64,000 bases of DNA from Bolinopsis microptera (lineage: Eukaryota > Ctenophora > Tentaculata > Lobata > Bolinopsidae): positions 10,463,837 through 10,527,836 of the forward strand of contig NC_087080.1 in assembly GCF_026151205.1 (NCBI RefSeq), written 5' to 3'. Positions 1,644 to 10,600 of this stretch are shown here, in pieces (the stretch's first letter is position 1; every line of letters begins with the position of its first letter). The position numbers and the translations under genes are program-made. The notes under the pieces were generated by a model, which saw only the letters and a program-made list of their open reading frames with translations, ran no database searches and was not told the origin of the DNA.

Positions 1644-4600
1644 CTGAAAAAGGAAGGATATTAGAGATTAAGTCAGGAGAAATAAAAGTGAACTAAATTG
1701 AGATAAGATTGAAATAAATGGGTGAAAATGTGATAATTTACACTTTATCACCCGTATACTATACGTGTATATTATGTAATTGATTTGTCTTTAACACGAG
1801 AATAAGACAAAAGAGATAAGGGGGTCTGACAGATCTTTAGCCCTCGGGGAAACGTCTAGACCTTTCCATCTAGACACAACCGGCCTTGTTTACCCACATA
1901 TCAGATGACGATATCAAGATCGCGATAACATTGTCATGTGCGTTAATTATGATTTAATAATTAGTAATTAATCCCTGGGAAGAACCGTATTACCAAGAGT
2001 CTAGACCCTGAATACCGGATGAATTCCCATTCAAATAATAACCTTATTCTGGTTGACCTCATCCTCGGGGTAGAGCCAGTAGTAGATCTTGTTATCCTGA
2101 ACACTACACCACCTTCTGTTCCAGGCTCCTAAACCGGACTCGTCTTGGAATATTGTCTGAAGAAGAGGGGTTGTTAGTAAATCCGTATAAAATTATTATC
2201 TTAACTGGGTTATGTCGCTGCAGGATGTTATAGGCGGACGGAGTGCCAAATGTTTGGAGTGTCACTTTAAAAGTGGTCATGAAGACATTATGTTTCCGGG
2301 AGGATGTAAAACAGTGTTCAAGCTAACGACCTTGTATTTGTGACCGCAGATTGTCAATGCAAAATGATTACGCCCAAGAATTTTCGCGTTGAAGGATAAT
2401 TTGGCACATTTGTCATAACGGAAACATCAACAAACATTAATACGGCAAATTGATAAAAACATCAACAAAGGATCTGAAAATGATGGACAAATTGAAAATG
2501 TTTGAGGTTTAAAAGGTAAACTCGTTGAACTCTGAATAAGTTTGAAAAATTAAAGTAACTAACCAAGAATCCTTTGTGGGAGGGAGGTTGGGATGAGATG
2601 GCCTCTTTAGCGGTCATTGACAGATTGATTGTACCTTCGAACGGTGAGTGGAACGGAGCCTGAAATAAAAGAACGGTTAGAATCTACAAAGATACAAAAC
2701 AAAATATTAAACACAAATTCAACATATGGTCGATCAAACATTCCCGTTATCGAAATATCCCCTTATCCCGTAACCCAAATCCCGGTACACAATAGCAATT
2801 GGCCACTTTTGCCATACGGTAAATATACAGCACGGTTTAGATAAAACATATAACTTACTCGCGCAGCAGGGACAATACAACACTACTATATATTGATTAT
2901 TGACACGTTTCTCTACTTTTTTATAGTACAGTGGAGGTTTTTAATTGATTTAGTCGCCTTTTCCTAGTACCCCAGATATGAAGAATTTAGCACTTGCACA
3001 GTTAATCAGCCTCAAAAACTATACACCAAGACATTGGCAACCAATTAAAGTAAGGACAACATTCTTTAATCCCGGGAGACACGACATACTACAACTAAGA
3101 GACGGATAAATTTGGGAGGTTGAAAAGTATTCGAGAAAAAATGACTGGCGAGTTGGTACCGATGCAATTACGAAGTAGAGATGTATTAATTGTATGCAAC
3201 TAATTAAACTGAATCGGTATTAAAATTTAAAGTATATCGTCAGACTTACTTGAATTTCAGGTTTCTTAACTTGAATTTCAGGTTTCTTGACATGAATGAT
3301 GTCATTTCTTTTAACTTTAATTTCATTTTTCATTTTGAATTTCATCTTAAAACGAGGCACCACAGAAACCACTGGTACCGTAAACTTTGTAGTCATGATC
3401 TAGCTCTAAATATAGATCAGGACTGGACAGCTCTACAAAACAACTCAACATCAGACAATACCGACACAGATATGCAAATTCTGGCGACCAGAAAGACGAG
3501 TGTTGATGTTTACCAGATAAAATTCTCCCTTGCATGGTCTATTAAAGTGCAAACAATTTGTGTCGTAAACCCTTGTCCTATTACGGACCAGACAGTGTCG
3601 GAGCTATCGGTCATTAAGGAACGTTTAGAGCTTTAGATCAGCAGCCGTTTCGACACATATTTCTATTGTTACATTTACTACTTTATCTCATAGTTCACAA
3701 TTTATCTTAAAGTTTGCAATTAGGAGGTATTCATACTATGCGGAAGGTGATGGTCAGGTGAATAGAGCGAGAAGCTTGTTAAATGGTGAAATTTAATTTG
3801 CGAAAGAATCCTAACAATGCGGAAGGGAAGATATAAAATATTTCAAGCCTCATTTTTGCGTTTCCCTCCCCCTTCACCAAATACATCAGAGGAAACTATA
3901 AAAGGAACAATTTCTGTGAGCAAATCTAAGGAGCAATTGGAGGAGCTAATTGAGGAGCAATCGAAGGAGTTAATTGAAGGAGTTAATTGAAGGAGTTAAT
4001 TGAAGTACCTTTTCGCACTCGGACTTGGCCCCACCACCAGAGCACCACAGAGCAGATCTGAGCATCTTGACGTCGTTACTCAACACAAATAAACTAGTGG
4101 ACATGTAGCCGGCAGTTTCTCCTATCAGTTTCTTGCCTTTCTTTGAGCCCCTTTTGCTTGACAGCCTTCTGTACATTGAATCAACAGTTTGCATGGTGAA
4201 CGGAAAAAGCAAAGATAGTAAACTAGAGTTGACAAATCGTTTGGACGAGAATTGGAAATGGTTTCAGCTCAGCCGAGGACCTGGGTTATCATGGATATGG
4301 GTCACGTGATTCTGAAGTGCACGCGCAAGTCACGTGGCGGTTTACTGATAAGGAATCATTTAGTGATAATTTGATTAAATATCCGGAACCTTTTCTCAAA
4401 ATCTCGGATTCCCCGGACCCCTCTCGCTCTCTCCAGCAAGATAGAGCTGGTTAATAGGTGATAATTTGGTCGAGTTTGCCAGGCATGTAGCTTTGTCCTC
4501 CATCACACTAATTGCTAAATCGGCTCCCGTAAATATTGTGCAGATTTCAATCTTCAGTAAAACGAAGATAAACCGAGTTTGGGTAAATATATGCAGTGTG

Positions 4601-7600: not shown

Positions 7601-10600
7601 CGATTCAGTAGAAGCCCAAATAACATCACAGATTAACCCAATCGTTTAGTTAAGGTCTTTGATCGCATTTACAGCAAAATTATTCAGCTTATTGTTATTT
7701 CAATCGATGAGCTTAGGCGATCACCCATCAAGGTTCATGCTGAACACTTTCTGAACATGAACAAAAATCCTAAAAATTTACTGATAGATGCGTAACTATC
7801 CTGGCGGTGAGCCTATAAAACATAATTACCAATTACCAATCCTTCCGGCGTTCCTATAAATAACATAATTAGCAATTACCTTTTCGTCTTCATTGAGCGA
7901 TGTGTCAACGAGAGTATGAGCATCCTCCTCAGATTCCGCCTTAGTTTCCTCGCTATCTTTATTCGAACTTTCACTTCCCTCCTCCGTCTCCTCGCTGTGT
8001 TCCATATCGTCATCCAGGAGTGAAGACCACGGAGATTTGACGGGAGTTGGGGCGCGCTCCTGTTCCGCTGCTGACGTCTCTGATGCTTCGCTCTCTGACG
8101 TCACCTCACTCTCAGTCATGGTGTCATCAGTTGACTCAACTGAGGAGGAGGTGGCTATATAAACTCTCTGCACTTTCTCCAGCTCACCACTCTTTGAAGC
8201 AAACACTCCGCTGTCCCTGCTGTCCACGCTCCTCAGCTCAGCTACCTCCGTGTCCGAGAGTGCGTCTGGGTCCTGGTCGTCTGAGGAACAGGACACTCCA
8301 CTGTCTCTGTCTGTGTCTCTGTGTGCCTTTACTCCGCTCTTCTCCTCCTCTACTCTGTTCTCAACTGGTTCAATCACTCCTTTAGCTAGATAGTGAGTAG
8401 AGCTGTGGTCCAACACTTCCACATTGTCTCGTCTAACTTCAGAAAACTTGCACTTGTTCAGGTCCTGTATTTCTTTCTGTGTTGTCGGGAATATATTATC
8501 ATCGTCCTCTGATATTCTGATTCTGGTGGGCAGGGAGATAGGGGAGAGGACCTCTTTAACCACACTCTCTCCACTGATAGTACGACTGAGAGACACCCTG
8601 GTACAGACACCCCCTGGTGCGCTAGCAGCTGATCGAGGAGCCAGTGCTCGGGGAGAGCTGGTGGTGGGAGAGGGTCCTGTGCTGCTCCCGGTGGACGAGA
8701 TGCTCCGCCTCATGGGGGTGGACAGTTTAGGAGGAGGTTTCTTTTTGGCTGCTTCTGCTGCCGCTGCAGCTTCGAAGTATTTCATTCGCTCTTTGAGGCT
8801 CATGGTTGCTTTAGGGTCTGGTGCGTTGCGATTTCTCATCATAGTTAAGTGTTCACGGTTCAAGCTAGGGTTAAATTTGGGTCAAAATTTGGTTAACATA
8901 TTTTGTAAGGTAACATCAAACGGATCAAACGTTTCACCGAACAAAAATTTCAAATCCTTTAAAATCAAAGGAATGCAAAATGCGAATAACCCGAATTAAT
9001 ACAAAAATGTCATATCACTGCAGGAAAACCGGAAACCATTCAAACAAAATTTGAAACGGAACCACTTTATATAGCAAGAAGAAACCGATCAAACAAAGAC
9101 ATACTGACGTATCGAAATTATAAAAATTATAAAATAAATGTACGATAAGTACCCTACTTATAAGGTTGCCATGCAGTCTGTACGAATAGTTTGAAATCCA
9201 TTACAACAGCTCACATAGCGATTACATGAAACGTAAGTCATCTTAGCTAAAACCAAGGAGTCGCAGTCCTAAACACACTAATACACATAAATCTGCCTTA
9301 AAACCGTTGAGCCTCTTACATTCTAATTTGCCACAAAAATTTGCAGCAAATTAGAATTTAAAAGGACAAACAAATGACAAACTGTAAAAAGGGCGTACAA
9401 ACCCCGGGACCAGGTGTAATTAGAATTGTAAACTAGATATAAAAGAGTGTAAATCGGGGAGAAACTATGTGGCAAAGCCTGAGATATGTCTTAATTATAA
9501 TCTGATCTAGCCCGCTCACATAGCTCAAGCAGTTGCAGTCTATCTGCGTCTGCGGTGTAAAGTTGGGATAAGCAAGTACCGAATACAGAATTGGTATTTT
9601 GACAAATTGGTCAAAATAGCTTAACTACCGGACTTGGTGACACGAAAACTAAATGTCTCAACGGTCTGCCCTCAATATGAAAGTTGCCGGAATGTTAAGG
9701 CTGATTAAAACCAGTCGGACTGTAACAGAGCACAGACCTTTAAGGAAGGTGGACCGCGTACACAGCAATCAACCAGAATCGTCCCTGTCAACCTGCTGTA
9801 AGTGTAGTAACTAACATTACTCTGCGCCGGCATTTCACAAAGCAGCTATTGAGATCAGTATAAAAACTTGTATTTTTAACCCTGCTCCAGACATAGCCGC
9901 TTGTTACAATCGGTACACGTGTCCAGTATTTGTCAGAGTTGTAACACAAGGAGGATGATCAAATATTTGAGATGCTGAAGACGTCTATATAATCAATCAT
10001 TATAGCTTTTAAATAACGGTGACTTTTAGATGATTTAACAGTACGTCTGGGTGGAGTCGATCTAAAAATGTTGCAACAAATAGGCCAACCGTGGAGCGTT
10101 GTCTCATCCAAAAACTTTAAAACATAACTGCAGCTTAGGAAAAGTCCGGAGATTATAAGGGTTTTGTCGATCGATTGGAAAATTGACCTTTAAAGTTCAA
10201 GAACATTTGAAGTTGAAAAGGCCAAAGAATAATTATAATTATAAAATTGACCTTTGAATTTCAAGAACATGAATTGAAGTTGAAAAGGCCAAAGAATAAT
10301 TATAATTATTCCTTATAATCTATCCGATGGTCCAAGGAATGCTTAAATCCGAACATTTAAAGTTGAAAGGAGATAAATAAGAACTAAGAGGCAGACTTGA
10401 AATGGTGAGTGTCTAGAAGGTGCCACCACAAGGCACGGATAGGTTATCATGATCCCAAAGTAGATCAGATCTAAGGATCACAGAAACGGATCCCGAGATA
10501 CTTGATACTAGCAGTTCATTACTCATCAGATTATAATATTTGATTTAACTCTAAATGTGGACTCATGAGCAAAATCATGCATTCTCAATCAACCTCAACT

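What the first reader, a model, noticed from the sequence alone, without database searches (positions are those of the whole stretch)
3250..8842. Three candidate internal start exons, all in phase to make PH-only anillin proteins
Seen: inside the 31.4-kb intron between the homology and PH domains, three open frames on the gene's strand end at consensus donors (AAG|GTAATT, AAG|GTACTT, CAA|GTAAGT). All are in phase 0, the phase exon 16 accepts. The largest (321 codons) has an upstream in-frame stop and no usable acceptor, so it is a first exon; TATATAAAG lies 225 bp upstream. Exon B has an ACCATG context and paired CACGTG sites upstream. Known: vertebrate anillin PH binds phosphoinositides and septins. 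Inference: internal promoters yield N-terminally distinct proteins carrying only the PH domain.
Basis: partly seen in the sequence, partly recalled or inferred. Interest (0 to 1): 0.78.

Follow-up and report, generated by a model that had tools for sequence, protein, structure and literature searches.

The report
Hidden start exon inside anillin gene
A comb-jelly anillin gene seems to carry, deep inside one long intron, a convincing 321-codon protein-coding start exon that would splice in frame to the last exons and make a second protein with only anillin's membrane-binding PH domain; two smaller candidates beside it are not clearly better than chance, and no RNA has been checked.

Summary
In detail: inside the 31.4-kb intron between anillin exons 15 and 16 (minus strand) three ATG-started open frames end at the stated donors, all phase 0, as exon 16 requires. 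They differ in strength. Exon A (8842-7880, 321 codons) is almost certainly coding: its 351-codon open frame exceeds all 2000 shuffles of the same stretch (maximum 235), a G+C plateau begins near its ATG and ends near its donor, and 0.5% of intron GTs match its donor. Exon 16's own acceptor is the best of 256 AGs between them, also when left out of training. Exon B (62 codons) has some coding character but frames like it are as common in control DNA; exon C lacks synonymous bias and is probably chance. The promoter clues fail: TATATAAAG is at chance and CACGTG is about fourfold enriched in other loci too. The genome fits the ctenophore Bolinopsis microptera. Ctenophores use spliced-leader trans-splicing and hold many nested intronic genes, so exon A's 5' end need not be an internal promoter, and a nested gene is the main rival. 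No RNA or cross-species test was possible.

The parts
7880..8842 (-). Exon A: candidate start exon, 321 codons, phase-0 donor AAG|GTAATT at 7880
   Evidence: frame, donor; ORF vs shuffles; donor rank, codon log-odds; G+C plateau; single match in the genome
8801..8803 (-). Second in-frame ATG (codon 14) in an ACCATGA context, possible true start giving MSLKERMKYFE...
   Evidence: read; context rule recalled
8882..8884 (-). In-frame TGA upstream of exon A
9065..9073 (-). TATATAAAG upstream of exon A; not above chance
4009..4194 (-). Exon B: weak candidate start exon, 62 codons, donor AAG|GTACTT
3250..3396 (-). Exon C: candidate, 49 codons, strong donor CAA|GTAAGT, no synonymous codon bias; probably chance
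2564..2659 (-). Anillin exon 16: end of the C2 part of the homology domain and first strand of PH; best acceptor in 7870-2651
2043..2156 (-). Anillin exon 17 (PH)
1471..1643 (-). Anillin exon 18 (PH)
1072..1165 (-). Anillin exon 19 (PH, stop codon)
34094..34236 (-). Anillin exon 15 (homology domain), phase-0 donor AGG|GTGAGT
2660..34093 (-). 31.4-kb intron that holds A, B and C
59170..59283 (-). First coding exon of canonical anillin (3' end approximate)

Best explanation
Exon A is an alternative start exon of the anillin gene. A transcript whose 5' end lies in the intron, made either by an internal promoter or by a spliced leader joined just upstream of the ATG, begins translation in exon A and is spliced from 7880 to exon 16 at 2659, giving a protein of about 479 residues: a basic N-terminus with a likely short helix, a long acidic serine-rich, probably disordered stretch, then anillin's intact PH domain, without the N-terminal parts and the homology domain that in other animals bind actin, myosin and Rho. 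Its likely action is to bind phosphoinositide membrane and septins through PH independently of, and perhaps in competition with, full-length anillin, as FRNK does towards FAK. Shown: the frame, donor, phase, coding signature, single copy and PH homology. Inferred: the transcript, the junction and the function.
For: Exon A is coding: 351-codon open frame against a maximum of 235 in 2000 dinucleotide shuffles of the same stretch and 206 in 200 Markov introns; codon log-odds 0.41 per codon in frame, 0.11 and 0.17 in the other two forward frames, -0.25 in the one reversed frame tried; G+C rises from 0.22-0.35 to 0.42-0.68 near the ATG and falls to 0.30-0.43 after the donor. One match in the genome, so not a repeat. 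Donor 8.9 bits is matched by 0.5% of 1968 intron GTs and lies inside the canonical leave-one-out range 2.9-11.5. Exon 16's acceptor is the best of 256 AGs between 7870 and 2651 even when left out of training (10.1, next 7.9); of the 16 AGs scoring 5 or more none of the other 15 opens a phase-0 frame longer than 28 codons. Phases match. Joining exon 15 to the only AG within 70 bases upstream (8864) meets a stop after three codons, so the whole of A is no in-frame cassette. Exon 16 holds the first PH strand, so joining there keeps PH whole; the tail matches anillin structures 4xh3 (4.5e-34) and 2y7b (2.4e-33).
Against: No transcript, no second species, no homologue of exon A: 0 Pfam families at E up to 10 for its first 320 codons, 0 PDB sequences at E up to 10. 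No promoter signal above background. The synonymous score of A with an outside training set is not frame-specific (0.091 in frame, 0.072 and 0.152 in the other forward frames, 0.03-0.139 reversed), so it reflects G+C. The phase match has a one-in-three chance. The product would start its tail with about 20 residues left over from the C2 fold. Ctenophores hold many parallel nested genes.
Confidence: 0.58

Rival explanations
1. Exon A belongs to a parallel nested gene inside the intron: either an intronless gene read through the donor to the stop at 7826 (338 codons from the ATG) or a gene with a short terminal exon before 2660. It shares nothing with anillin but the strand.
For: In the ctenophore Hormiphora 2357 nested intronic genes lie in 1654 hosts, many parallel to the host (PMC8527503 section 38). 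Polyadenylation-like signals lie downstream, e.g. 6778-6240.
Against: The open frame beyond 7880 is only 17 codons, G+C falls at the donor, and none of the 15 other acceptors scoring 5 or more between 7870 and 2651 opens a phase-0 frame over 28 codons while exon 16's acceptor is the best. A short terminal exon or a weaker acceptor is not excluded.
Confidence: 0.22
2. Part of exon A is an in-frame cassette exon entered at an internal acceptor (8476, 199 codons, phase 0), giving full anillin with an acidic insert between C2 and PH.
For: The AG at 8476 scores 6.8 or 7.5 in phase 0, within the canonical leave-one-out range 2.6-12.8.
Against: The G+C plateau and open frame run on to 8842, 366 bases upstream; the insert would split the last strands of the C2 fold (inference).
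Confidence: 0.07
3. All three are chance open frames in a long intron.
For: B- and C-like frames occur at about the observed rate in 129 kb of control DNA. B's donor (4.4) is matched by 7.8% of intron GTs and only 2 of 16 canonical donors score lower when left out. C's synonymous score is reached by 50% of simulated frames and 58-65% of intron windows.
Against: Excluded for A. B: the 62-codon log-odds 0.263 exceeds all 759 simulated frames and its synonymous score is reached by 0.13% of them, though by 2.4-3.4% of real intron windows. C: its overall codon log-odds (0.092) is reached by only 0.29% of 1724 simulated frames and 0.3% of intron windows, and its donor by 0.1% of GTs.
Confidence: 0.05
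4. B is a second genuine start exon of the same short product (220 residues), used in another setting; C is not.
For: ACCATG context; codon log-odds as above; single match in the genome; 2 of 16 canonical donors are weaker when left out.
Against: Frequency at chance; plus-strand islands of similar score occur in the same stretch; donor among the weakest.
Confidence: 0.27

Closest known systems
FRNK, the C-terminal product of the FAK gene
   Same: Made from an alternative internal promoter in an intron of the host gene; N-terminal and catalytic parts absent; acts as a dominant negative (PMC1570463, passages).
   Different: FRNK's promoter and transcript are reported in chicken and mouse; here there is only sequence. 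The passages speak of a 5' leader exon and a start codon about 1 kb from the transcription start, which I read as no new coding exon; exon A would add 321 new residues.
Telokin, from the smooth-muscle MLCK gene
   Same: C-terminal domain made alone from an internal start (telokin seen only in a search listing; mechanism recalled).
   Different: Different gene and domain; no long new N-terminus (recalled).
C. elegans ANI-2
   Same: An anillin-family protein called a putative competitor of ANI-1; both lie at the germline rachis (PMC6467243, passages).
   Different: ANI-2 comes from a separate gene and keeps the homology domain as well as PH (recalled); here one gene and PH only.
Parallel nested intronic genes of ctenophores
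   Same: Coding sequence on the host strand inside a single host intron (PMC8527503 section 38).
   Different: A nested gene ends inside the intron; for exon A no convincing end was found there, and it fits exon 16.

Membership tests
C-terminal isoform from an internal start exon (FRNK/telokin kind) | Start codon in an intron of the host gene, with upstream in-frame stop | tested here: met
C-terminal isoform from an internal start exon (FRNK/telokin kind) | Donor in the phase accepted by the next host exon, which begins an intact C-terminal domain | tested here: met
C-terminal isoform from an internal start exon (FRNK/telokin kind) | Own promoter or own 5' end | tested here: inconclusive
   No promoter signal above background; acceptors near the ATGs mostly weak
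C-terminal isoform from an internal start exon (FRNK/telokin kind) | Transcript joining the start exon to the host's last exons | not testable with these tools
   no RNA data
Anillin (host gene) | Homology domain followed by a C-terminal PH domain | tested here: met
   Joined exons 10-16 match Pfam Anillin PF08174 at 54.7 bits, cut-off 24; the exon at 40304-40456 alone stays below it at 20.4 bits; PH 60.5 bits, cut-off 25.1, and 4xh3/2y7b
Anillin (the exon A product itself) | Homology domain | tested here: not met
   0 Pfam matches in exon A; the predicted product has PH only, so it is a PH-only product of an anillin gene, not an anillin by architecture
Parallel nested intronic gene | Whole transcript within one host intron | tested here: inconclusive
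   No convincing terminal exon between 7870 and 2662; a single-exon form ending at 7826 is not excluded
Spliced-leader trans-splicing | Leader genes present in the genome | tested here: met
   Pattern found 32 times against 9 for the reversed pattern; 4 of 30 loci fetched (L039-L042) carry an upstream sequence like the published Hormiphora leader. Likeness judged by eye
Spliced-leader trans-splicing | Usable acceptor shortly upstream of the ATG | tested here: inconclusive
   A: one AG (8864, TAG) scoring -1.6; B: one AG (4222, TAG) scoring -6.3; C: seven AGs, best 4.3 at 3403; canonical anillin start: two AGs, 59302 (CAG) 2.3 and 59284 (TAG) 0.2 (rescored 1.0, -2.6, 4.9, 4.2, 0.7)

The most novel reading that the evidence does not exclude
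A ctenophore makes, from one anillin gene, a second 479-residue protein in which a new acidic N-terminus is joined to the anillin PH domain alone, its mRNA being started inside the long intron by spliced-leader trans-splicing or an internal promoter; it competes with anillin for septins and phosphoinositide membrane and helps keep intercellular bridges open, a part like that of ANI-2 in the worm germline, and may have arisen when a nested gene captured its host's last exons.
Probability: 0.15. Interest if true: 0.68.

Novelty: new member of a known kind. Interest (0 to 1): 0.42.

Why it matters
If exon A is used, one gene supplies both the full contractile-ring scaffold and a PH-only product able to occupy the same membrane and septin sites, which would be a simple handle on how ctenophores, held by some to be the sister of all other animals, tune cytokinesis or stable cell bridges. 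It would also show how ctenophore gene nesting and leader trans-splicing can turn an intron into a source of new proteins. The listings of five searches of open-access papers show no PH-only anillin product in titles or starts of abstracts (listings were capped at 5 of 5, 20 of 51, 16 of 17, 8 of 14 and 15 of 682).

Tried and rejected
Promoter evidence: TATATAAAG 2 seen, 1.3 expected; 26% of intron positions sampled have a TATAAA or TATATA within 300 bp upstream; CACGTG enriched in the window and in other loci. Rejected as evidence.

Exon A as a repeat or retrocopy: one match at E up to 10 in 264.65 Mb, 7 candidates scored; exon B likewise, 1 candidate. A retrocopy of the A-exon 16 message should have shown as a second match; none.

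A second anillin gene for comparison: the only other Pfam Anillin hit (C11, 13.25 Mb) has a weak PH-like match to this anillin nearby (E 0.23) and looks like rhotekin (identity recalled). No use for exon A.

Exon A as a copy of canonical anillin N-terminal exons: a 31-bit match at 20% identity without composition correction (E 7.8e-5), put down to shared S/E/K-rich composition; not tested further.

Splice scores: my first tables scored canonical sites with models trained on those same sites. Redone leaving each out: exon 16's acceptor stays best (10.1; next 7.9), but B's donor is not below all canonical donors, as the in-sample table suggested (2 of 16 are lower). B's odds were raised from 0.25 to 0.27 for this.

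Trans-splice acceptors: all 15 canonical acceptors are CAG; A and B have only TAG sites of low score near the ATG. Of 30 kinase loci 15 could be read in forward orientation, 14 had an ATG and 11 an AG within 60 bases, best scores 1.0-10.5. Inconclusive.

Synonymous codon test with 7399 codons from 29 of 30 kinase loci (L062 dropped for a stop): A above all intron windows but not frame-specific.

Structure prediction of exon A: asked four times, machine busy each time; not obtained. Helix and disorder statements rest on composition and inference.
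Full report
What the window is. The window is G000:C9:10463837-10527836 of a 264.65-Mb genome in 232 contigs. Total size, contig C1 (26.206 Mb) and contig C11 (20.825 Mb) fit the Bolinopsis microptera assembly as tabulated in PMC11797021 (265 Mb, 13 chromosomes, largest 26.2 Mb, N50 20.8 Mb, G+C 38.5%; passages read); the table gives 346 scaffolds, not 232. A leader-like sequence close by eye to the published Hormiphora leader in 4 of 30 fetched loci (L039-L042) fits a ctenophore.

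Host gene. Anillin runs on the minus strand from its first coding exon at 59283 to a stop at 1074-1072. Sixteen coding segments were placed by reading frame (975 whole codons); an exon near 46.8 kb was recognised besides, and the list may be incomplete. Joined exons 10-16 match Pfam Anillin at 54.7 bits, cut-off 24. Exons 16-19 encode the end of the C2 part plus the PH domain and match anillin structures 4xh3 (E 4.5e-34) and 2y7b (E 2.4e-33). Exon 15 ends at 34094 and exon 16 begins at 2659, both phase 0, across 31.4 kb.

The three frames. All exist as described. They are not equal. Exon A: its 351-codon stop-to-stop frame is outside every control: 2000 dinucleotide shuffles of the same 1062 bases give at most 235 codons in six frames, and 200 order-3 Markov introns at most 206 on one strand. 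Codon log-odds trained on canonical anillin are 0.41 per codon in frame, 0.11 and 0.17 in the other forward frames and -0.25 in one reversed frame; canonical exons left out in turn give -0.11 to 0.44, and intron windows of the same length at most -0.15. G+C in 60-base steps is 0.22-0.35 upstream, 0.42-0.68 inside and 0.30-0.43 downstream. The donor scores 8.9; canonical donors left out in turn score 2.9-11.5. A caution: with an outside training set of 7399 kinase codons the synonymous score of A (0.091) beats all intron windows but not its own other frames, so it mostly records G+C.

Exon B has codon log-odds 0.263 against a maximum of 0.012 in 759 simulated frames, and one of these 759 reaches its synonymous score. 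But real DNA has heavier tails: 2.4-3.4% of intron windows reach that score, islands of similar log-odds lie on the opposite strand of the same stretch, its donor (4.4) is among the weakest (2 of 16 canonical donors lower), and frames of its class occur 10 times in 129 kb of control DNA, 2.4 expected in this intron against 3 seen. Exon C has an excellent donor (9.9, matched by 0.1% of GTs) and an overall codon log-odds reached by only 0.29% of simulated frames, but its synonymous score is at the null median (50%, 58-65%) and it holds a short tandem repeat (3248-3297), so I put the log-odds down to its lysine-rich repeat. I take B as possible and C as probable chance.

What exon A joins. Of 256 AGs between 7870 and 2651 the exon 16 acceptor is best even when it is left out of training (10.1 against 7.9 for the next), and it is in the right phase; the other 15 AGs scoring 5 or more open phase-0 frames of at most 28 codons. 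A phase-0 AG inside exon A at 8476 (6.8, 7.5) leaves an in-frame cassette of 199 codons as a lesser rival. Joining exon 15 to the AG at 8864 runs into a stop after three codons, so the whole of A can only be a start exon or belong to another gene. Another gene is a serious rival in this phylum: PMC8527503 (sections 37 and 38 read) reports, for Hormiphora, 2357 nested intronic genes in 1654 hosts, many parallel, and leaders on 56% of Iso-Seq reads.

How it would start. Leader trans-splicing is an open alternative. AGs 22 and 28 bases before the ATGs of A and B are weak TAG sites; C has seven AGs within 70 bases, the best (4.3) 7 bases before its ATG; the canonical anillin start has a CAG 19 bases (2.3) and a TAG 1 base (0.2) before its ATG. 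This does not discriminate. No leader copy lies in the window (0 matches with up to 3 mismatches).

What it would do. Anillin's PH binds phospholipids and septins (PMC7575755, passages), and PH matters for recruitment to the equatorial membrane, with the neighbouring C2 helping (PMC5230765, passages). A product with PH alone and an acidic N-terminus (exon A plus tail 479 residues, 52.8 kDa, pI 4.9) could bind there without the Rho-, actin- and myosin-binding parts, and so act as a competitor, on the pattern of FRNK (PMC1570463, passages) and of ANI-2, called a putative competitor of ANI-1 (PMC6467243, passages). Against this, C2 helps membrane recruitment, so PH alone may bind weakly. This step is inference.

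Verdict. The finding is real for exon A, doubtful for B, likely chance for C. The kind of system is known (internal-start C-terminal isoforms); the case (anillin, in a ctenophore) does not appear in the listings of the open-access searches made. RNA evidence decides it.

Noticed in passing
window, 47 sites, e.g. 13314/13326, 20799/20834/20865, 44927-45005: CACGTG occurs 47 times against 7.0 expected, often in pairs or threes 12-35 bases apart; 129 against 29.8 in 253 kb of other loci. An excess without explanation here; the published ctenophore loop-anchor motif is described in the passages seen only as GC-rich with two CpGs.
   Followed up: partly
window 45962-46487: Three tRNA-Asp(gtc) genes within 526 bases inside an anillin intron, two on the minus and one on the plus strand, with equal scores.
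   Followed up: no
window 34244-36129: Minisatellite of about 61 copies of a 31-base unit (96% matches) ending 8 bases before anillin exon 15; it supplies that exon's pyrimidine tract and could affect splicing.
   Followed up: no
window about 33350-34090, 43190-43930 and 43930-44700: Three copies of an element, two in tandem and one in the other orientation, with inverted GCGGGCGG-type ends; looks like a non-autonomous DNA transposon (judged by eye).
   Followed up: no
window 4420-4503, minus strand: A 28-codon coding-like frame starting MEDKATCLANSTKLSPINQLYLAGESER just upstream of exon B, without a strong phase-0 donor.
   Followed up: partly
window 60700-63950: Open frames with reverse-transcriptase-like phrases beyond the 5' end of anillin, probably retroelement remains (resemblance recalled, not searched).
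   Followed up: no
L039-L042 (C12:3.73 Mb, C13:12.81-12.83 Mb): Likely spliced-leader gene copies, clustered on C13, ending in AATTTGAG before GTA.
   Followed up: partly
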